Below, in pieces: positions 39,346 to 52,454 of a stretch of DNA of 64,000 bases; positions within the stretch are counted from its first letter, which is position 1, and every line of letters starts with the position of its first letter. This DNA comes from Pseudoips prasinana (Eukaryota > Arthropoda > Insecta > Lepidoptera > Nolidae). Location of the stretch: NCBI GenBank assembly GCA_951640165.1, contig OX621263.1, forward strand, positions 5,416,501-5,480,500, written 5' to 3'. A program made the position numbers and the translations under genes. Under the pieces are notes generated by a model, which worked only from the letters and a program-made list of their open reading frames with translations, had not been told where the DNA came from and ran no database searches.

Positions 39346-39478
39346 TACACACGGCTACACAGCCAGCTACACATTTCCAGTATAAGCTCTCGCACCTCGC
39401 ATTGTATAGAATTTCCATACAATGACAGGTCAGCTTATATTGGAAATGTATAACTTGATATGTAGCCGTGTGTGTACT
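39346..39478. repeat. Foldback sequence of about 130 bp
   Basis: GTACACACGGCTACA faces TGTAGCCGTGTGTGTAC, and CATTTCCAGTATAAGCT faces AGCTTATATTGGAAATG. It overlaps the first bases of the 342-bp direct repeat. Confidence 0.6.
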
Positions 39479-39807
39479 ATGGAAACTGTTTTTTACGCGA
39501 GAAATGATTTTAAGGATAGATTTGTGGTTATTTATGATGTTGATGTTAGCTGTGCCCCCGACTTTGTCTGCGTCGTAGTTGATAATTTCAGACGGTAACT
39601 TCTGGAATTCGGAATAGCGCGCAAATATATTATGCGTGTGGCACAAATTCTAGATAGCGATAAAACAGTACTCTTTTTTATCGTGTCTCACTTGTGTAGG
39701 TACTGTTCCGGTTTTCCAATAGATTACAGCATAGGACCCTTCAAAAATGGAGTTATAAGGTTTCTAAAGGGTCGGCAACGCGCTCATGATGACCCTGGTG
39801 TTGCAAG
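39466..39807 (+). repeat. 342-bp direct repeat, copy 1
   Basis: Begins CCGTGTGTGTACTATGGAAA and ends CCTGGTGTTGCAAG. Nearly identical to 40184-40526 (a few substitutions and one extra T). The last 80 bp are a LINE-tail motif (GTCGGCAACGCGCTCATGAT). Confidence 0.9.
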
Positions 39808-40183: not shown

Positions 40184-40526
40184 CCGTGTGTGTACTATGG
40201 AAACTGTTTTTTACGCGAGAAATGATTTTAAGGATAGATTTGTGGTTATTTATGATGTTGATGTTAGCTGTGCCCCCGACTTTGTCTGCGTCGTAGTTGA
40301 TAATTTCAGACGGTCACTTCTGGAATTCGGAATAGCGCGCAAATATATTATGCGTGTGGCACAAATTCTAGATAGCGATAAAACAGTACTCTTTTTTATC
40401 GTGTCTCACTTGTGTAGGTACTGTTCCGGTTTTTCCAATAGATTACAGCATAGGGCCCTTCAAAAATGGAGTTATAAGGTTTCTAAAGGGTCGGCAACGC
40501 GCTCATGATGACCCTGGTGTTGCAAG
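40184..40526 (+). repeat. 342-bp direct repeat, copy 2
   Basis: As copy 1. It continues without a break into a normal LINE tail at 40527, so this copy has the original 3' context. Confidence 0.9.
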
Positions 40527-42996: not shown

Positions 42997-43006
42997 TGGG
43001 CAACCA
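42997..43006. repeat. Target-site duplication of the LINE (left)
   Basis: TGGGCAACCA, identical to 52445-52454 directly after the poly(A) tail. Confidence 0.9.
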
Positions 43007-43326
43007 CACTTCCCTTCCCGCTACGCTACGGCTCAGTGCGTCGGAGGTTCGCTGTGAAATAATATTATTTTTCTGCTATTTCGTAATTGTTTTGTGACCT
43101 GTGTTTTGTTTCTAGCTTTAGTGTTAGTGCTAAATACTACAATCTGTAAGTTTTTTAAGTGTTTTAATAAGTAATATCTGGATTTTAGTTCAAATTATCG
43201 TTCGGTGAGTAAGTTTAACTTTTTTCTTGTGAGGGTACCGCGTCATAGTCACAGTTACTTGTTATCGTGCTAAATTAGTTATCGTGCTGTTTACATTAAA
43301 GCGCTTGCTTATTTCGTGTGAATAAC

Positions 43327-43464
43327 ATGTCAAAAATGAATGATGTCCCCCCCGATAGAGGGCGAAACGCGTTTGGGAGAAGTAAACAGACTCCCAGAAC
43401 GCCCCCTTCAGGCTTCAACAAACGAGTGTTAGACGATGCGTCACCGACGTTTTGTACTCCCGAT
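43327..43464 (+). pseudogene. LINE ORF1, 5' part (46 codons), cut by LTR insertion
   Basis: Start ATG at 43327 (a GTG 9 bp upstream is not needed). The peptide begins MSKMNDVPPDRGRN and runs to TFCTPD, where the last codon GAT is part of the target duplication CGAT of the inserted LTR element. The frame carries straight on at 47852. Basic, Pro/Arg-rich N-terminus, as in many LINE ORF1 proteins. In the present locus translation would run into the LTR and stop shortly after. Confidence 0.85.
43461..43464. repeat. Target-site duplication of the LTR element (left)
   Basis: CGAT, repeated at 47848-47851 right after the 3' LTR. Confidence 0.9.
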
Positions 43465-43739
43465 TGTAAGCATCACATAATAATTCAGAACCCAATGTTT
43501 ATTTCATCATTTAGTTAATCATTTAATTCTAGATTTGAATAGTATCGATATTTGGTATTAATACAAATATCGATACCTCCATATTTCTTGTATTATGAGT
43601 GGCAACACACAGAAACTGTCAGTGGAGGAGAAATATGTTTGTGAGTTGTCAAGAAGTTATAATAAGTTGGTGTGACAATAAATCCATAATTATTCGTGTA
43701 ATCTAATTGTTTTACTGAGTTTAAGACCTTGATCTAACA
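43465..43739 (+). repeat. 5' LTR
   Basis: TGTAAGCATCACATAATAAT ... GACCTTGATCTAACA, 275 bp. It contains an inner near-palindrome ATCGATATTTGGTATTAATA facing CAAATATCGAT. Differs from the 3' LTR at one base (ATTTGG versus ATTTTG). Expected to hold promoter and polyadenylation signals; CAATAAATC near 43675 is a candidate region. Confidence 0.95.
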
Positions 43740-43747
43740 ACTCAGAA

Positions 43748-45343
43748 GTGGGATTCACATGGACTACTGATTATTTCGTAAAAATTGGCCGTCAGATTTA
43801 TTTTTATTTTCGTTTTGTATACGTCGGTACCGACATTGTGGCAATACATTTTTATTCTTTTAAAATAAATACGATAGGATCGAAAACGGAGAGAACCACT
43901 ACGCCGTCTATTCAGAGCGAGACGATTAATATTCAAAAGCAGTTGACGAAAAGGAAATGTAATGACAACAAACATGAACGAGTGCAAAAGAGTCGGAAGA
44001 GACATTGTGCTAGTTATAGTGATTCTTCGGACGAGAGCCCTCATAGCAAGATGACTCAAGTTAGCGGTTCTCTCAAGCGCCGGAATTGTTATTCTCGTGA
44101 TCGTCGAACTGGCCGTGTTCGCAAGAAGCAAATGCGTCAGTACAGCCGTTCTTCATCTCAACCTCGACGCAGTCGTTCTAGAGAGAGGAGCAGCCGTTCC
44201 AGAGAAGTGAGGAGCAACCGTTCCCGAGGGAGGAGGAGCATTCGTCATTCACGAAAGAGGAGCAGCGGCCGTTCCGAAGAGAAAAGGAGCAACTATTCTA
44301 GTGATCGTCAGAGGAATCGCCCCAGAGAGCATCGAAGAAGCCGTCCCCGTGAGCGTCGAAGCAGCCGAAACCGCAGACGGATTCGATGTGATCGGAGTCG
44401 ACAAAGTAAACGGTGTAACGAACAGAGGTATAGTCCGACTAATTATTTAAGCGACGAGGGCTGTTCAAGACAAGGGGTAAGTCTCAATAATAATAATGAT
44501 ACTTTAATATTGTTATCCAAATTATTGCAGTCATTAGTGAGTGGTCGTCCTGAGAGCAATAAATTCCCCATGCTAGGTAACGTTATACCAGAATTTGACC
44601 CAATGGTTAAAGGACAAACCAATCACACATGGCTCAGTAAAGTTGATGAATGTTCGAGATTGTACAAGTGGGGTGATGATCAGGTAATACATTACGCATT
44701 ACCAAAGTTATCAGGTGTCGCGAGACCTGGTATCAAGCTTTACCAACCATGTCATTTTCTTGGGCTGAGTGGAAAAACAAACTTACGGAATCGTTTCCTA
44801 GCAGCGATGACTATGCGGAGTTGTTAACAGAAAGCGTGTAAAATATAACGAGTCACTAAAACTTTATTATTACGAGAAAATTAATTTACTGAATCGGTGC
44901 GAAATAGTAGGTAAACGGGCAGTTGACTGCTTGCTTAACGGTATTGATGACAGATCATTGAGGCTAGGTGCAAAAGCTTCCAAATGTCAAGAGCCCGAAC
45001 ATGTACTGGAGTATTTACAGTCGATTAAACAGCAGCCCCGGGACTTAGCAAATCTTATAGGCAGTGAAAAATGTACATTTGTAACTAGTGGTAATAGTAC
45101 CAATAAATATTTAAATAACGATTTAAATATGAGGGTGCAGTCAAATAATTCCGTGGTTTGTTACATTGTAACGAACCGGGTCATTTTAGTTTTAGGTGTA
45201 CCAAGAAAATATTAAAATGTACTTTATGTAATAAGTTAGGACACACATCTATAAATTGTTCAAGGTTACCTTCCGAGAATAATACAAAAATGGACAAAAC
45301 GAGTGAAAAGAACGTTTTGCGAGTTGACATGAGTGATCATTAA
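43748..45343 (+). pseudogene. LTR-element gag with an Arg/Ser-rich segment, frameshifted
   Basis: An open frame from 43748 (no early ATG; the first in-frame ATG is about 44051) encodes a basic region. From about codon 125 to 225 it is dense in RS, SR and RR pairs (SRSRERSSRSRE; RPREHRRSRPRERR). Next comes a mag-type capsid-like block (FPMLGNVIPEFDP, VIHYALPKLSGVA). A frame change near 44722 moves the WYQ...EWKNKL portion out of frame. Gag resumes (YYYEKINLLNRC; GIDDRSLRLGA) to 45160, then shifts again into zinc knuckles C-x2-C-x4-H-x4-C (GHFSFRC; CTLCNKLGHTSINC, 45158-45280). Nucleocapsid-type RNA binding is expected of the family. Confidence 0.75.
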
Positions 45344-45360
45344 TATATGCTATTATTAAT

Positions 45361-46861
45361 ACTTAATGGAAATATTTTGACTGGTTACGTCGATCTACTC
45401 AGTAGCCAATGTACCCTGATACGACACAGTGATGCTCAACGTTTGGGAATCACGTGTAACACTAACGATACCTGCCACTTATTACCACTACTCATAGGAT
45501 AAGCAAGCAAGCATTGATACAAAATGTATCTGATAATTTAATTCGCTTAGTAAAGGGCACACTTCTAACACGAATTCATCGACCAAATCGTTTTATGAAT
45601 GTACACAAGTTACATTTAGACTAACAATTCGGGTGACATTCTCGATTTTGACAACACATTAACGGATGATGAGGTCGATCAATTAAAGATATTGCTCAAG
45701 CATAGGACATGTAGATGCTCTGTGATGCTCTATGATGCTCTATGATGATGATTTTTATAATTTATTTATTTTTTTATAGATGCTCTAAGTCATGCTCCTG
45801 TAGCCGAATCTGAACTTGGTGATGAAGATTGTCAAGTACTTGATGTCTTAAGTTTAGAACTAAAATATTGGATTTCTGCCGTACAGGGCAACGATAAAGA
45901 AATTACAAGAATTAGAAACATTTTGCAGGATACCGAAACTAAACAAGTGGCTGACATGCACAAAAACTATTTATTAAAGGGAGGTTATGTTTATAAAATG
46001 ATTGAGAACGGGATACGATGGGTCGTGCCACGCGCAGTTAGATGGCAGGTTCTAAAGATGAAACATGATGACGTGTACATTTCGATTTTGAGAAAATTTT
46101 AGGTCATTTACAAAGTGTGTTATGGTTTCCCGAAATGCGTCGCTTTACGAAAAAAGTATGTAACCGCTTGTTTAGAGTGTGCTACCACAAGGTTCCCAGT
46201 GGCCGTAAAGTAGGCATGATGCATTCCATTCCTAAACTTGAGGTTTCCTTACACACATTACATGCGGACCATTTAGGCCCTTTCGTTCGTTAAAAAAAAG
46301 GTAATACTTATCTACTGGTAATCATCGATTCGTTTACAAAATTTATCAATATTCGACCGGTAAGGGACACTAAAAGTACGACGGCAATCAGGGTTTTCGA
46401 AGAATACTTTAGTTTCTTTGGCACACCGTCCCGCCTAATAACTGATCGCGGAACTTGTTTTGCCAGTGGCAAGTTTAAATCTTTTGTAAATTAGGCTTAG
46501 GCTATGAGCGGTCAGTGTTGAGGTGTAGATGGTCGTAGATCATAGTAGACTGTGTTCATTACAAGTCGGTGACATAGGCTATGAGCGGCCAGCACTACAA
46601 CATAGATGACCGTAGATTGTAGCAGACTGAGCAAAGTTAGCTGTGTTCATGAGCTAGGTGCGATCAGCGTGAGTATTCACGTAGATGGTCGCAAATTAAA
46701 AAAAAAAAAAAAAATATGTGATAAGTATAAGTAAGTTTCTTGAGGAATATGAAAATGTTGTTGCACTGGACAAAATACATTCTTGGCTAGCTTTTAAAAG
46801 TATCGCAAGTGATGCTTGTAATAGCGACAATACTGCTAGTGATTTGGAAGGCACTGATTGA
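45361..46861 (+). pseudogene. LTR-element pol remnants (protease start, pre-integrase, integrase core, C-terminus)
   Basis: 45379-45450 reads GYVDLLSSQCTLIR, close to the aspartic protease G-x-V-D-x-G-S region but without an intact D-S/T-G. 45650-45712 ends LKILLKHRTC, the beginning of RT. RT and RNase H are gone; the junction has TAGATGCTCT on both sides (45709, 45776). 45780-46110 is the pre-integrase (YLLKGGYVYKMI). 46235-46490 holds LHADHLGPF and LITDRGTCF (first two catalytic Asp), with an in-frame stop between them. The distal core with the third acidic residue is missing. About 46740-46861 is a plausible pol C-terminus (HSWLAFKSIASDA) ending at TGA. Confidence 0.7.
46501..46697 (+). 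repeat. 197-bp repeat of the LTR element, upstream copy (inside integrase)
   Basis: GCTATGAGCGGTCAGTGTTG ... ACGTAGATGGTCGCAAATTA. Almost identical to 47197-47393. Followed directly by a run of A (about 46696-46713). It replaces the distal integrase core. Confidence 0.9.
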
Positions 46862-47028
46862 CTGACAGTATAATAAGTATATAAAATATTTGTACATACA
46901 TTTAATTATTAGTAATTATAAGTTGGCTTGGTATGATATGTTCGATTAAGATCAGTACTATGTAATTGCATTATTATTTATTGTTCCAAGATTTGTAATT
47001 AAGGATATGGCAAAGCAAGAAAGGCATA

Positions 47029-47393
47029 GGCTATGAACGGTTTTCTGAAGCATAGATGGTCGTAGATCATATCAGACTGTGTTCATGGATGGTTTAATCA
47101 TGACATGGGGTATGAGCGGCCAGTGCTGAAATGCATATTACCGCAGATCATAGCAGACTATGTCCTATTGTGAAATGAATTGTAAAGTAAGCTTGGGCTA
47201 TGAGCGGTCAGTGTTGAGGTGTAGATGGTCGTAGATCATAGTAGACTGTGTTCATTACAAGTCGGTGACATAGGCTATGAGCGGCCAGCACTACAACATA
47301 GATGACCGTAGATTGTAGCAGACTGAGCAAAGTTAGCTGTGTTCATGAGCTAGGTGCGATCAGCGTGAGTATTCACGTAGATGGTTGTAAATT
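47029..47393 (+). repeat. 3' region of about 75-80-bp degenerate tandem units
   Basis: Units starting TATGAGCGGCCAG or similar and containing TAGATGGTCGTAGATCATAG recur at about 47034, 47110, 47198, 47273 and 47345. The 47197-47393 part is the 3' copy of the 197-bp repeat. Non-coding, just before the 3' LTR. Confidence 0.85.
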
Positions 47394-47572
47394 ATAGCAG
47401 ATCATGATAGATAAATGTGTTATATTGAAAAGTTGATGTGAAAATATTGATAATGATTTGTTAGTGCTTACCTTTCATTGTATAATTTTACCTTATTGTT
47501 TCTTTTTATATTTGGTTTTATTTATGCTTTATTTTTATGTGAGAGGACTCACTAGAATAAGGATGGCCGAGC

Positions 47573-47847
47573 TGTAAGCATCACATAATAATTCAGAACC
47601 CAATGTTTATTTCATCATTTAGTTAATCATTTAATTCTAGATTTGAATAGTATCGATATTTTGTATTAATACAAATATCGATACCTCCATATTTCTTGTA
47701 TTATGAGTGGCAACACACAGAAACTGTCAGTGGAGGAGAAATATGTTTGTGAGTTGTCAAGAAGTTATAATAAGTTGGTGTGACAATAAATCCATAATTA
47801 TTCGTGTAATCTAATTGTTTTACTGAGTTTAAGACCTTGATCTAACA
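47573..47847 (+). repeat. 3' LTR
   Basis: 275 bp, one substitution from the 5' LTR; begins TGTAAGCATC, ends GATCTAACA, followed by CGAT. The polypurine tract should lie just upstream; GAATAAGGATGGCCGAGC (47555-47572) is not a strong one. Confidence 0.95.
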
Positions 47848-47851
47848 CGAT

Positions 47852-49024
47852 GGTCAACAGGAATCGGAAATAAAACGTTTTCGGGGATCTCAATCCGATT
47901 ATTCGTCTTCATTAAATATTAGCGATACAAACAGTGCGGAATATAATTATTGCGATATTGTGACACAAGCTTCCGTTTATCTGTCAAAGGTTAACGAATT
48001 AGTCAGTAATTCCAACTCGGGTATGAATATTGCGAATAAGCTATCGGTGATGGATTGTACGCAGCGCCTTACCAGTATTATTTCATTACTTGCGCTTAAA
48101 TCTTCATGCAATGAAACTAAATTGGCGAACGCAGAACGTCAGTTAGATCTTTGCGTAAATAAAACCAATTCTGAGATTCCTACGTACGCGGAACAATTAA
48201 AACTGCGTTTACCGAAAAAAACCGCCGCCCCCATAGTACAGACGCGAAAACCGGTTCCTTCAATTATTGCGTATCCCACCGCTGAGCGATCAGCGGAGTA
48301 CGCGACTTCGTCGGCGACCAAGGAAGCGCTTATGAAGGCTATAAAACCCGCGGACGACGGTTTTCAAATAGTAGGCGTTAAAAAAACTTCCAATTCTGGC
48401 GTTGTACTCCGAGTGGCAAATGAAACCCAACTCAATAAAATTCGCTCTGTCGAGGCCATTCGTTCGGCGGGTTTAAAACTTCAAACTCCATCCGGGCGAC
48501 GACCGCGCATACTTATAAAAGATATACCGTCGTCAATGGACGACCAGGTCTTTTTAACGGCGTTATACAGGCAAAATATCAAAGATAGTGATCTTAAAGT
48601 CAGCGAAGACGATTTTACGTCTAAAACTAAAATTGTGCGCAAGCGTAACGTAGCTAATGGGCGCAAGTGGGTGGGAATTGAGCTCGAACCGGAGATTAGA
48701 AAACATTTAGTCAGCACTAAAGAAAAACTTTTCATCGACTGGGCTACATGCCGCTTTATTGATGATTTAGAGGTAGTTCGGTGTTTAAACTGCCAGCAAT
48801 ATGGGCGTGTTGTCAAGTACTGTAGTAATAAATTACCTACCTGTGCCTTATGCGCAGAAGCACATCCCACAAAATCATGTAAGCACCACAATGACCCAGA
48901 ATTTAAACCAGTTTGTGCATCGTGTAAAACATATAAAAAACCTCACGACCACAAATGCGGCTCGGACAACTGCCCCACATTTAAGCATAAACTTGAGCAG
49001 TTAGTGCTAAATACCAAATATTAA
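47852..49024 (+). pseudogene. LINE ORF1, 3' part (390 residues, zinc knuckles), cut off from its start
   Basis: Continues the frame of 43327-43464 and is open to TAA at 49022. Together the two parts correspond to a 436-residue gag-like RNA-binding protein. Near the C-terminus are three Cys-rich units. Unit 1 (from 48782) is C-x2-C-x4-R-x4-C, where the usual His is Arg (CGT, one transition from CAT). Unit 2 is C-A-L-C-x3-H-x4-C. Unit 3 is C-A-S-C...H-D-H-K-C. A middle region (RPRILIKDIPSSM) resembles the domain preceding knuckles in R1/jockey-type ORF1 proteins. Two lesions therefore affect it: the LTR insertion and the knuckle His loss. Confidence 0.85.
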
Positions 49025-49025
49025 T

Positions 49026-52000
49026 ATGGCTTACTTAAAAATAGGGCAGCTAAATCTTCACAACGATAGGGTTGCGACATCAGAGTTGGAAACTTTAGTC
49101 AATGAATACAACTTAGATATAGTGCTTGTACAAGAACAATATCAATATGCGCGTTTAAAAAATAAATTGGTGCAGCTAGACAACAAATCACGGGCTGCTA
49201 TTTACGTAACGCGTACTAATTTTACGGTAAGCGCTATGCGAAACCTCATGACGTCACACTGTGCTGTCGCTGAAATATCATCCCCATCCTGGAAAGTTTA
49301 CGTAGTGAGCTGTTATTTTCAGTATTCAGATCCTGTCGGTCCCCATTTACATCACTTGCGCCATGTTTTGATGTCCCTCAAAGGACACAAAATTATTATT
49401 GGCGCAGATGTTAACGCATCCTCTACATTATGGTATGGCAAATACCGTTCAAGCGATACAGAACGGCGGAACGCCGTCGAAGATTTCGTCGCTGAGATGA
49501 ATCTATCAATACATAACACTCCTGATGCACCGCCTACTTATTGTAGCCCTACTGGCGAATCTTTTATTGACGTCACTTTTTCAAGCTCAGACGTCCGAAT
49601 AGATGGATGGCGTGTTTTGCCTGACGCTTCATCCAGTGATCACCGCTTAATCGTGTACGAGTTTGTTCCTCGGTTGGCACAAAGACCTACGGCTATTTAC
49701 GGTAACTATAGATATCGGCTCAAAGGGGCCGATTGGGATTTTTTCAGAGCTCTTTTTGCCGCGCATGCCAGGGATTTCACCCGGGATGAACTAACAACAG
49801 AGGAATGTGCTGTAATGATGTCGGACACTTTTACCTACTGTGCCGATATTGCCATAGGCCGCGTCCCTATCACTAATATTCGAAGATGCGATTGGTGGAA
49901 TAACTACTTAATTAAAGTTCGATGTGAATTTCGGAGAGCACGTAAAAAATATAATAAACTAAAAAAACGTAAAATTGTAGGCGATGTTTTAAATAATGCA
50001 TATATAAATCTCAAAATAGCTCGTTCACGTTACCGCTCGTCAATAGAGAAATCCAAAGGCAATCTTATTAGAAAAATAGTCGATAAATTAGATAAAGAAG
50101 GCCCGTGGTCGCCCCTATACCATGAGTTTAAAGCAAATAGGTCTATAGATTTAGCTTATATTCAAAACATAAAAATCAATAATACCTACACCAGTGGCAT
50201 AGAGGAGACCACGGAATCCTTACTTAATTCGCTCATACCTGATGATAGTTCCTTGAACGATAATGACTACTATAAGCAGATTAGACAGTGGGCAAACAAT
50301 CCACCCGCTACCTATATGTCAAGTCTTCCTACAATTAATGAGTTTATGAATACTGTGAAATCGCTACCTGTTAACAAAGCTTCAGGTGAAGATAAAATAT
50401 CCAACAAAATGATAATAGAAGCCACAAAACAATCCGGTGATTCAATACTAAAAGTTTTTAATCGTTGCATATCTGAAGGGACTTTTCCGCGTTCTTGGCG
50501 CAGCGGTTTTATTCGTATTATACCAAAAAATGGCGATAAACTGCCTGAAGACCCTAAGTCATACCGACCAATAACGTTACTGCCTTCCTTAGGCAAGCTT
50601 CTAGAACGACTTATTGTACCGCGATTGCTGCCGGGAGGACCAAAATTTCACGGAAATCAATTTGGTTTTACTGCGGGTAAATCGACAGTGGACGCAGCTA
50701 TCTCAGTGAGGAAAGCTGTAAACTCGTCCGAATGTAAATACGTTTTGGCCATATTCCTAGATATTTCAGGGGCGTTTGATAATACTTGGTGGCCAATTTT
50801 GTTACAAAAACTTAAGTTACGCGGTTGTTACAGTAATATATATTCAATAATCACATCTTATTTCGTACATGGCTCTGCAACTCTTAAGCTTGGTCACTTC
50901 AGAGTCACTAAATCGTTAACCATGGGTTGCCCCCAGGGCTCAGTGCTCGCGCCGTATCTCTGGAACTTGGGTTTTGATGACTTCTTGACATTACCCTTGC
51001 CATCACGCTGCTCTCTAACGGCATATGCTGACGATGGCCTCTTACTTATACAGGGTAACTCCAGGAGAGAGTTGGAAAATCTGGCTCAAACTTGCTTAAG
51101 TATGATAAGTGAATGGGGTAAAAGAAATCGCCTTACATTTGCTCCTCATAAAACCTACCAACTCCTTCTTAAAGGTGAACTAAAATCCCCCCCGGGCGTA
51201 AAACTTAATAATGTTACTGTAAAACGCAAAATATCAACCTGTTATTTGGGTTTAGTTTTAGAAAAGAATTTCTCGTTTATAGAACATATTAAATCAGTTG
51301 GGGAAAAAGCTAAGCGAAACTTTTTTGCACTTACAAGGATATCGACGGCAACCTGGGGCCTCTCTTTTAATACTCTTAAAATCATTTACGGGGCAACCTA
51401 TCTCGGGTGTATATGCTACGGCTCGCCTGTGTGGGCTGATAGGGCTACCATCGGAGCTGCTCGCCGTAAATTACTACAAAGCCAGAGGTTGGCGTTGATA
51501 TTTCTGTGTAAAGCCTATAGAACAGTGAGCACAGAGGCCCTACCTGTCCTAGCGGGTGTACTACCGGTTGATCTTGAAGTACAAAGACGAGCAGCAATGT
51601 ATTATTCTACGCGCGATAATTTAGAAAATGATTTCTTATCATTACGCGACCGTGCGAAAATAACCAGGCTATTTATGCCAATAGCTGACTTAAATAACGA
51701 ACTACTAAATGAATGGCAATGTAGATGGAATACGTCAACCAAGGGTCGCCATCTGCACCAGTTCTTTCCGGACGTACGCGAACGGTTAAATAAAACTTGG
51801 CTAATCATAGACCATTGTGTTGCACAATTTCTTACCGGACACGGCAATTTTAAAAGTAAATTGTATAGTTTCAAATTAGTATCTTCACCAATCTGTCTGT
51901 GCTCAACATCCAGTAACGAATATGAACAAACTGCTCACCACATCCTGTGGGAGTGTGATCTCTGGCAAAATCAGCGTGATATTATGTTAAACAACTTGCA

Positions 52001-52103
52001 ACCAATATCTGGAGTAGTTTATTATACGGATCTTGTAGCAACAAGGAACAACTTCCGTGCGTTTAAGCGTTTTTGCCATACCTACTATTGGAATCAAATA
52101 TAA
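49026..52103 (+). CDS. LINE ORF2: AP-endonuclease and reverse transcriptase (R1 clade), 1025 aa
   Basis: The enzyme would nick target DNA and copy the element RNA there (target-primed reverse transcription). Residues 1-220 are an APE-type endonuclease: QLNL at 8-11, Glu37 in LVQEQY, GADVNAS from 126, and the end motif S-S-D205-H206. The reverse transcriptase spans about 450-750: LDISGAFD with Asp579, GCPQGSVLAP at 634-643 and YADD at 667-670. A C-terminal Cys/His unit C957-x-C959...H971/H972...C977 (CCHC-like) follows. No RNase H domain was seen. Start ATG 49026 lies one base after the ORF1 stop (TAATATG), suggesting translation coupled to ORF1 termination. The motif wording (VNASSTLW; GCPQGS; YADD) fits the R1 clade. 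No stop or frameshift in 1025 codons and no missing catalytic residue; supply of ORF1 would have to come from another copy. Confidence 0.95.
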   Translation: MAYLKIGQLNLHNDRVATSELETLVNEYNLDIVLVQEQYQYARLKNKLVQLDNKSRAAIYVTRTNFTVSAMRNLMTSHCAVAEISSPSWKVYVVSCYFQYSDPVGPHLHHLRHVLMSLKGHKIIIGADVNASSTLWYGKYRSSDTERRNAVEDFVAEMNLSIHNTPDAPPTYCSPTGESFIDVTFSSSDVRIDGWRVLPDASSSDHRLIVYEFVPRLAQRPTAIYGNYRYRLKGADWDFFRALFAAHARDFTRDELTTEECAVMMSDTFTYCADIAIGRVPITNIRRCDWWNNYLIKVRCEFRRARKKYNKLKKRKIVGDVLNNAYINLKIARSRYRSSIEKSKGNLIRKIVDKLDKEGPWSPLYHEFKANRSIDLAYIQNIKINNTYTSGIEETTESLLNSLIPDDSSLNDNDYYKQIRQWANNPPATYMSSLPTINEFMNTVKSLPVNKASGEDKISNKMIIEATKQSGDSILKVFNRCISEGTFPRSWRSGFIRIIPKNGDKLPEDPKSYRPITLLPSLGKLLERLIVPRLLPGGPKFHGNQFGFTAGKSTVDAAISVRKAVNSSECKYVLAIFLDISGAFDNTWWPILLQKLKLRGCYSNIYSIITSYFVHGSATLKLGHFRVTKSLTMGCPQGSVLAPYLWNLGFDDFLTLPLPSRCSLTAYADDGLLLIQGNSRRELENLAQTCLSMISEWGKRNRLTFAPHKTYQLLLKGELKSPPGVKLNNVTVKRKISTCYLGLVLEKNFSFIEHIKSVGEKAKRNFFALTRISTATWGLSFNTLKIIYGATYLGCICYGSPVWADRATIGAARRKLLQSQRLALIFLCKAYRTVSTEALPVLAGVLPVDLEVQRRAAMYYSTRDNLENDFLSLRDRAKITRLFMPIADLNNELLNEWQCRWNTSTKGRHLHQFFPDVRERLNKTWLIIDHCVAQFLTGHGNFKSKLYSFKLVSSPICLCSTSSNEYEQTAHHILWECDLWQNQRDIMLNNLQPISGVVYYTDLVATRNNFRAFKRFCHTYYWNQI

Positions 52104-52443
52104 CAGCTCACTTAGGACCCTTAAATTGATCCTCGGTGCTTTTGCAGCTGGCTTCTCTAGTTGCAAATCTCTCATTTTATGAGGCTATAGCCTCTTTACA
52201 TCATTCTGTCTCCCGCTTTGCTCTGGAGGGAAGTGGAACTATTCATTTTCTAACTCCTCCTTTTTTCTGTTTCTGATTAAATTCGTTGCGGGATCCAAGA
52301 CAGTTAAAGCTATTCCCCGGGACATGCCTGAGCTTCACCGCTCAGTGTCATTTCATTGTGTGCCACTGTTGATCCTGGCTTACAGGAGTTGCAGTGGTGG
52401 GTAAGAGGGAGGGACTAGTCCCGTTAAAAAAAAAAAAAAAAAA
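52104..52443 (+). other. LINE 3' UTR and poly(A)
   Basis: About 320 bp with a pyrimidine-rich stretch near 52240-52275. It ends CCGTT then 18-19 A residues, with no AATAAA close to the tail. Confidence 0.8.
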
Positions 52444-52444
52444 G

Positions 52445-52454
52445 TGGGCAACCA
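52445..52454. repeat. Target-site duplication of the LINE (right)
   Basis: TGGGCAACCA, as at 42997-43006. Confidence 0.9.

What the first reader, a model, noticed from the sequence alone, without database searches (positions are those of the whole stretch)
43461..47851. LTR retrotransposon inserted in frame-preserving fashion into ORF1 of an otherwise intact LINE
The 275-bp LTRs differ at one base, CGAT stands on both sides, and the ORF1 frame continues exactly from 43464 to 47852. The host LINE has its own clean 10-bp duplication and an uninterrupted 1025-codon ORF2. The order of events is readable: LINE landed first, then the LTR element, both recently. ORF2 may still be expressed while its own ORF1 is destroyed, giving a natural test of trans-complementation.
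Basis: seen in the sequence. Interest (0 to 1): 0.75.

Follow-up and report, generated by a model that had tools for sequence, protein, structure and literature searches.

The report
RT-less LTR element inside a LINE
A young jumping element that has lost its own copying enzyme landed inside another young jumping element in an insect genome, and it belongs to a lineage that carries a leucine-tRNA look-alike where the start signal for the second DNA strand should be.

Summary
The nested insertion is real: a 4,383-bp LTR element (275-bp LTRs, one difference, CGAT duplication) sits in ORF1 of an R1-clade LINE with its own 10-bp duplication. "Frame-preserving" is trivial: the filled frame stops after 63 codons. 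"Otherwise intact" is too strong: ORF1 also carries a private His-to-Arg change at a zinc ligand (29 of 29 other copies examined have His). Sister copies with open ORF1 are plentiful, so this is no clean trans-complementation test.

The inserted element lacks RT and RNase H. Eight other two-LTR copies examined share that deletion, in different places with near-identical LTR pairs, so the defect predates the insertion: the family is mobilised in trans.

Unexpectedly, there is no polypurine tract. A sense copy of the tRNA-Leu 5' end abuts U3, while the PBS pairs with the tRNA-Leu 3' end: 11 of 11 copies, and 10 of 13 loci of related families. Genome-wide GGATGGCCGA-N0-2-TGTWA occurs 279 times (control 1); 46 of 55 listed PBS sites have one downstream. 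My paper searches found no description of it. That tRNA-Leu primes the plus strand is inference, untested.

The parts
42997..43006 (.). 5' target-site duplication of the host LINE (TGGGCAACCA)
   Evidence: exact 10-bp repeat flanking the LINE
43007..43464 (+). host LINE, 5' part: 5' UTR and start of ORF1
   Evidence: 28 of 29 other LINE copies match this piece; most begin within 43007-43012
43327..43464 (+). ORF1 codons 1-46
   Evidence: ATG and frame
43461..43464 (.). CGAT, left copy of the LTR element's target duplication
43465..43739 (+). 5' LTR (TGT...ACA); AATAAA at 43677
43742..43756 (+). primer binding site, 15 nt complementary to tRNA-Leu near its 3' end (the last five tRNA nt are not matched)
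   Evidence: tRNA-Leu(CAG) genes of the same genome; present in all 10 other two-LTR copies examined
43733..45343 (+). gag remnant (Arg/Ser-rich N-terminus, capsid-like part, CCHC knuckles), frame broken in this copy
   Evidence: zf-CCHC E 6.3e-7
45467..45776 (+). 310 bp standing where RT-bearing copy L018 has about 1862 bp (end of protease, RT, RNase H)
   Evidence: BLAST coordinates; L018 domains
45761..46494 (+). integrase remnant in three short frames, truncated inside the core domain
   Evidence: Integrase_H2C2 E 0.006 (below cut-off), rve E 3e-10
46477..46698 (+). copy of the downstream 222-bp repeat, followed by an A run, interrupting the integrase core
   Evidence: D2, 96% to 47173-47394
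47173..47394 (+). second copy of the 222-bp repeat, itself made of about 77-bp units
47539..47552 (+). hairpin GTGAG-AGGA-CTCAC
   Evidence: sequence; folds; hairpins of other sequence at the same place in related families
47560..47572 (+). tRNA-Leu 5'-end-like block AGGATGGCCGAGC (about tRNA nt 4-16), sense, directly abutting U3
47573..47847 (+). 3' LTR
47848..47851 (.). CGAT, right copy of the target duplication
47852..52444 (+). host LINE, 3' part, ending in an A run
47852..49024 (+). rest of ORF1 (three CCHC-type knuckles)
48806..48808 (+). ORF1 codon 365: Arg in place of the zinc-ligand His
49026..52103 (+). ORF2, 1025 aa: endonuclease and reverse transcriptase, R1 clade
   Evidence: Pfam Exo_endo_phos_2 E 4e-19 and RVT_1 E 1e-35; nearest PDB chain R1Bm endonuclease E 9e-43
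52445..52454 (.). 3' target-site duplication of the host LINE

Best explanation
A recently amplified R1-clade LINE (probably lepidopteran) inserted first. A non-autonomous Ty3/gypsy element, lacking RT and RNase H and with a truncated integrase, then integrated into its ORF1, making a 4-bp duplication. The incoming element was already defective: its RNA was packaged, reverse transcribed and integrated by proteins supplied by other elements. The likely helper is a related family, because the only RT of its own family among the scored matches lies in an older, broken copy. The insertion destroys ORF1 and probably silences ORF2 in cis, so this LINE copy is dead; it also has a private zinc-ligand substitution. 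Reverse transcription of the inserted element's lineage starts at a PBS for tRNA-Leu (shown by sequence); the site where the plus strand must start, next to U3, is not a polypurine tract but a copy of the tRNA-Leu 5' end behind a hairpin (shown by sequence; the priming role is inferred).
For: Anatomy. Empty site in 28 of 29 other LINE copies. No RT hit in the window element's tested pieces, while copy L018 has RVT_1, RNase H and integrase domains. Eight other copies (L009-L015, L017, without L016) share the RT-less structure; all 10 fetched two-LTR copies have matching 4-bp duplications; LTR pairs show 0 substitutions in 9 of the 10, and 4 in the RT-bearing L018. RT search of the whole genome: 142 of 4137 candidates scored, none but L018 itself above 76% identity. 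tRNA-Leu edges.
Against: The duplication CGAT also occurs at L012 with other flanks, so it is not a unique signature. Only 142 of 4137 RT candidates were scored, so a closer autonomous partner may have been missed. No reads, expression or population data were available. L016 has its own rearrangement, so not every copy is of one type. Gag is open over 537 codons in L012, so some copies may contribute Gag and are not fully passive.
Confidence: 0.87

Rival explanations
1. The 3' edge is a polypurine-tract substitute acting purely in cis: the element's own RNA at the hairpin and GGATGGCCGA block survives RNase H cleavage and primes the plus strand. Its likeness to tRNA-Leu is a relic of an old template switch onto the primer tRNA, or is fortuitous, and no tRNA takes part.
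For: Plus strands of LTR elements are described as starting from an element-encoded RNA next to U3, and the all-purine rule is not absolute (PMC3185511, passages; PMC5371799, passages). Three families deviate from the tRNA inside the block (L074-type, L078, L079), as a cis primer could tolerate. No co-variation with another tRNA was found.
Against: The families that deviate in the core or lack A4 (L074-type, L079, L075) still carry GTC, the first three tRNA nucleotides, at the right place. The motif is specific to the same tRNA that the PBS uses: 279 versus 1 control sites, but the related class II tRNA form CGTGGCCGA gives 20 versus 23. The block contains several pyrimidines; the longest purine run in the last 60 nt is 7 in the window element, 8 in L072 and 8 in L074.
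Confidence: 0.5
2. One reading: an otherwise intact LINE whose ORF2 stays expressed, giving a natural trans-complementation test.
For: ORF2 is open and its full-length relatives are conserved. A 3'-LTR transcript could read into ORF2 (inference).
Against: Near-identical copies with open ORF1 are common. A poly(A) signal stands in the 5' LTR. ORF2 translation depends on ORF1 in SART1 (PMC2881922 passage). His-to-Arg in ORF1. All four strictly private substitutions of this LINE copy change an amino acid, one of them in ORF2.
Confidence: 0.08
3. Assembly artefact joining two elements.
For: Both elements are repetitive with near-identical copies, the setting in which misassembly happens.
Against: Exact LTR ends, exact CGAT on both sides, LINE frame and sequence continuing across the junction exactly as in 28 of 29 other LINE copies, and outer LINE duplication intact. 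The contig is 25 Mb in an assembly of 56 contigs.
Confidence: 0.03

Closest known systems
Non-autonomous LTR retrotransposons: TR-GAG, LARD and TRIM types, and the tandem-repeat-bearing non-autonomous elements of Culex
   Same: LTRs, PBS and duplications intact, catalytic pol domains missing, multicopy, mobilised in trans; tandem repeats inside as in 38 Culex families (PMC3286476, passages). A long gag frame in some copies, as in TR-GAG (recalled, not looked up).
   Different: Still carries part of the integrase; polypurine tract replaced by a tRNA-Leu 5'-like block.
Ty3/gypsy elements of insects with a tRNA-Leu PBS (Mag lineage of Culex; gypsy/mdg3 group)
   Same: 4-bp duplication; gag-protease-RT-RNase H-integrase order in L018; PBS for tRNA-Leu or tRNA-Ser in Mag-like Culex elements (PMC3286476); PBS offset of 5-8 nt said to be typical for Ty3/gypsy (PMC10965091, passage).
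   Different: The passages seen describe no tRNA 5' end next to U3. The lineage was not placed on a tree with named elements here.
Ty3 of yeast with bipartite PBS; copia with half-tRNA primer
   Same: Use of more than one part of the primer tRNA, or of a tRNA fragment, in reverse transcription (PMC5371799, passages).
   Different: In Ty3 both PBS segments pair with the tRNA, and plus strands start from a real polypurine tract. Here the 3' block has tRNA sense and could pair only with minus-strand DNA. Copia's half-tRNA primes the minus strand.
R1-clade LINEs of Lepidoptera (R1Bm, SART1, TRAS1)
   Same: ORF1 with CCHC knuckles; ORF2 with AP-like endonuclease and RT; ORF1 stop one base before the ORF2 start; nearest solved endonuclease R1Bm.
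   Different: Among the copies examined, insertion sites differ and are neither rDNA nor telomere repeats by eye; 10-bp duplication and A tail.

Membership tests
Ty3/gypsy LTR retrotransposon | LTRs bounded by TG...CA with a short target duplication | tested here: met
   TGT...ACA; 4-bp duplications in the window copy and in 10 of 10 other two-LTR copies
Ty3/gypsy LTR retrotransposon | gag-protease-RT-RNase H-integrase order | tested here: met
   met in copy L018 (frame order; RVT_1, RNase H, Integrase_H2C2, partial rve; no Pfam hit for the protease frame); the window copy lacks RT and RNase H
Ty3/gypsy LTR retrotransposon | tRNA primer binding site just inside the 5' LTR | tested here: met
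   15-nt match to tRNA-Leu of the same genome
Ty3/gypsy LTR retrotransposon | polypurine tract abutting U3 | tested here: not met
   AGGATGGCCGAGC abuts U3; longest purine run in the last 60 nt is 7
Non-autonomous, trans-mobilised LTR family | shared internal deletion in copies with different insertion sites and near-identical LTR pairs | tested here: met
   window plus 8 other copies
TR-GAG type | gag open, pol absent | tested here: inconclusive
   gag open over 537 codons in L012 and 515 in L014, broken in the window copy; integrase remnants persist
mdg3 or Mag lineage | RT placement on a tree with named elements | not tested
   no named reference elements were available
R1-clade LINE | ORF2 endonuclease and RT closest to R1/TRAS | tested here: met
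   2ei9 (R1Bm) E 9e-43, 1wdu (TRAS1) E 3e-18; no tree was built
R1-clade LINE | fixed target site (rDNA, telomere) as in R1, SART, TRAS | tested here: not met
   5' flanks of other copies differ from one another; not a feature of the whole clade (recalled)
Bipartite PBS as in Ty3 | 3' segment complementary to the primer tRNA | tested here: not met
   the 3' segment has tRNA sense; the only antisense match of 13 nt or more in the element is the PBS

The most novel reading that the evidence does not exclude
In this insect Ty3/gypsy lineage one tRNA serves both strands. The 3' end of tRNA-Leu primes the minus strand at the PBS. Pairing there frees the 5' strand of its acceptor stem. The freed 5' end, or a 5' tRNA fragment cut at about nucleotide 14-16, then pairs with minus-strand DNA at its complement right behind U3 and primes the plus strand (or docks the ends for strand transfer), replacing the polypurine tract. 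The conserved upstream hairpin would set the RNase H cut or keep the site open.
Probability: 0.3. Interest if true: 0.9.

Novelty: new variant of a known kind. Interest (0 to 1): 0.6.

Why it matters
The nesting itself is ordinary for a repeat-rich genome. Two things around it matter. First, an RT-less family whose copies look as young as, or younger than, the only RT-bearing copy of its family that was scored in this genome: a clean case for asking which related family helps it. Second, a whole lineage in which the polypurine tract, treated in the reviews seen as the general plus-strand primer of LTR elements, is replaced by a copy of the 5' end of the same tRNA that primes the minus strand. 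If the tRNA really primes both strands, that is a new step in reverse transcription and would link these elements to 5' tRNA fragments. If not, it is still a conserved non-purine plus-strand site that annotation tools looking for a polypurine tract could miss.

Tried and rejected
Frame preservation as a special event: rejected. Dating the two events apart: the intervals overlap. Excess amino-acid outliers in ORF1 or ORF2 as a sign of decay: not clear. The window ORF1 part had 19 outliers (several of them N-terminal alignment gaps) against 1-21 in the other rows, and ORF2 12 against 1-17 in the 17 rows P0001-P0017; P0018 and P0019 had 34 and 57, and the partial rows P0020-P0025 138-270. The private zinc-ligand change was kept as a finding because it rests on DNA copies. 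Scans of viral contigs for a tRNA-Leu pattern, the LTR start and the RT alignment found nothing usable. Paper searches: with only the listed part of the longer lists seen. Searches are the ones on which 'not found in print' rests; one search returned only papers with tRNA or primer sequences where opened, and one search returned three papers on unrelated subjects that I did not open. Elements covered only in subscription journals or repeat databases would be missed.

Results against the tRNA reading. Of 13 loci of related families examined, 3 do not show the 3' block: L071 (no second LTR in the stretch), and L082 and L083 (not found even after extension as L084 and L085). LTR boundaries are confirmed by an LTR pair only in the window family, L072 and L074; elsewhere they rest on the TGT start. 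The rest of the window also holds matches of 13 nt or more to tRNA-Leu in both orientations, which I did not trace (T-arm or SINE sequence is my guess); the two edge motifs themselves occur once each with up to one mismatch. Hairpin z-scores are modest (-1.2 to -3.1, single-nucleotide shuffles) and in L072 the lowest-energy fold pairs otherwise. The shorter pattern TGGCCGAN{0,2}TGTWA gives 871 against 431. The pairing count used the 55 PBS sites that lie within the part of the genome covered by the first 100 of 279 listed 3' sites, and the PBS pattern used there (CA-TC-TCAGAAGTGG) is not that of the window family. The 35-nt invariant run at the 3' edge is not the longest invariant run in the aligned end (46 and 42 nt exist).


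Full report
1. What is there. An LTR element of 4,383 bp (43465-47847) lies inside ORF1 of a LINE (43007-52444). The frame statement says only that the empty site was coding. The filled allele reads 46 ORF1 codons and 17 LTR codons to a stop; downstream, the first in-frame Met would leave 333 residues.

2. The host LINE. ORF2 has Exo_endo_phos_2 and RVT_1 domains; its nearest solved relatives are the R1Bm and TRAS1 endonucleases; its nearest proteins are full-length at 75% identity, and the named ones among the 31 hits are lepidopteran. ORF1 relatives (37 hits) have the same pattern of names. In the window's own genome (1.126 Gb, 56 contigs) the search with a 425-bp ORF1 piece had 510 candidates, of which 40 were scored, all near-identical. 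I examined 29 others: 29 of 29 differ from ours at 48807 and carry the His codon there; 28 of 29 have the empty site, and the exception starts downstream of it. ORF1 is open in 21 of the 25 whose start lies in the fetched stretch. Over 3131 bp our copy has four strictly private substitutions, all amino-acid changing, plus one shared with a single other copy. This fits a copy that has drifted without constraint, and means the family supplies ORF1 from many places.

3. The inserted element. Tested pieces give zinc knuckles and integrase fragments but no RT. Copy L018 in the same genome has the missing parts: RT, RNase H and integrase domains. Against L018 the window copy has 310 bp in place of about 1862 bp (end of protease to RNase H) and about 251 bp in place of about 559 bp of integrase; the second replacement is a copy of the element's own 3' repeat followed by an A run. 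Of the 10 other two-LTR copies fetched, L009-L014, L015 and L017 share this structure (L015 and L017 with further insertions), L016 has another rearrangement, and L018 carries RT. All 10 have matching 4-bp duplications; nine have no LTR-LTR substitution (L013 and L017 have indels), L018 has four. Because the deletions are shared by copies in different places, they predate these insertions. The RT search of the genome found no match above 76% except L018 itself, among 142 scored of 4137 candidates. The element was therefore copied with proteins from elsewhere, most simply a related family. In some copies gag is open (537 codons in L012, with zinc knuckle and a weak Retrotrans_gag match); in the window copy it is broken.

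4. Dates. LTR pair 1/550 and LINE 4/3131 give overlapping intervals (with a recalled mutation rate). The order rests on nesting. The sister copy L009 matches our 5' LTR at 275 of 275 positions in both of its LTRs, so the single LTR difference arose in our 3' LTR.

5. The edges. The element has two exact matches of 13 nt or more to tRNA-Leu: 15 nt antisense at 43742-43756, the PBS, and 13 nt sense at 47560-47572, directly before the 3' LTR. The tRNA was identified in the same genome: GTCAGGATGGCCGAGC occurs at 17 places; of 12 loci looked at, ARAGORN tRNA-Leu(CAG), and the other 5 look like intron-bearing tRNA-Leu by eye. Published tRNA-Leu primers agree (fly; human; passages only). Both edges are the same in the window copy and in all 10 other copies, except one base after the PBS core in L014 and L017. 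No purine run longer than 7 lies in the last 60 nt.

6. The same edges in related families. Thirteen loci chosen by RT match (76% down to 49% identity to L018) were examined: ten carry, just before a TGT start, the tRNA-Leu 5' block in exact or slightly changed form (L072-L081), and three do not (L071, L082, L083). L074, L076 and L077 are one family by their edge, so with the window family this makes nine families. In the eight for which enough sequence was held, a hairpin of differing stem sequence, usually with an AGGA or AGGT loop, lies 3-7 nt upstream. Genome-wide the exact block followed within two bases by TGTWA occurs 279 times against 1 for the reversed pattern. A PBS pattern of the lineage occurs 138 times against 4. 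Of 55 PBS sites in the part of the genome covered by both lists, 46 have a 3' block 2-15 kb downstream on the same strand, most often near 6.1-6.6 kb, against a chance of 0.0016 per site, and 1 case lies on the wrong side or strand. The related form CGTGGCCGA gives 20 against 23, i.e. nothing. So the block is specific to the tRNA that the PBS uses.

7. Mechanism. Shown: position, sense orientation, conservation and specificity. Inferred: because the block has tRNA sense it can pair only with minus-strand DNA, at exactly the point where plus-strand synthesis must begin. When the 3' strand of the tRNA acceptor stem pairs with the PBS, the 5' strand is freed, and that is the part copied at the 3' edge. 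The bold reading is that tRNA-Leu, or a 5' fragment of it, primes the plus strand. The sober rival is a cis-acting, non-purine primer of tRNA origin. I put 0.3 on the first and 0.5 on the second; the rest covers other roles, such as strand transfer or packaging.

8. Novelty. Nested insertions and trans-mobilised LTR families are known kinds. A plus-strand site made of the primer tRNA's 5' end was not found in the papers searched; reviews seen in passages describe the polypurine tract as the general primer.

Noticed in passing
47539-47572; L072-L081; 279 genome sites: Hairpin plus tRNA-Leu 5'-end copy in place of the polypurine tract, paired with a tRNA-Leu PBS, across at least nine families.
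   Followed up: yes
2121-2217: Truncated second copy of the same LTR's 5' end in the window, 86% identical.
   Followed up: no
43542-43576 and 47650-47684: Near-perfect palindrome with two TATCGATA motifs in each LTR; the only LTR-LTR difference lies in it. TATCGATA recalls the fly DREF/BEAF site (recalled).
   Followed up: no
46477-46720: Copy of the element's own 3' repeat ending in an A run sits in the integrase core, as if an RNA-derived piece had been inserted.
   Followed up: partly
L013 and L017: The two LTRs of one copy have different lengths (266/275 and 261/263) with no substitutions, suggesting template exchange between RNAs.
   Followed up: no
L015, L017, L018: These LTR-element copies contain other insertions with LINE-type frames inside them, the reverse nesting.
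   Followed up: no
48812 in L054-L058: A second LINE variant (T for G) in 5 of 29 copies, a possible subfamily marker next to the zinc-ligand codon.
   Followed up: no
973-1025 and 1406-1507: Pieces similar to the 3' end of the host LINE, on the minus strand.
   Followed up: no
39466-39807 and 40184-40526: 343-bp direct repeat at 99% next to a minus-strand frame with a weak zinc-knuckle match, perhaps another young element.
   Followed up: no
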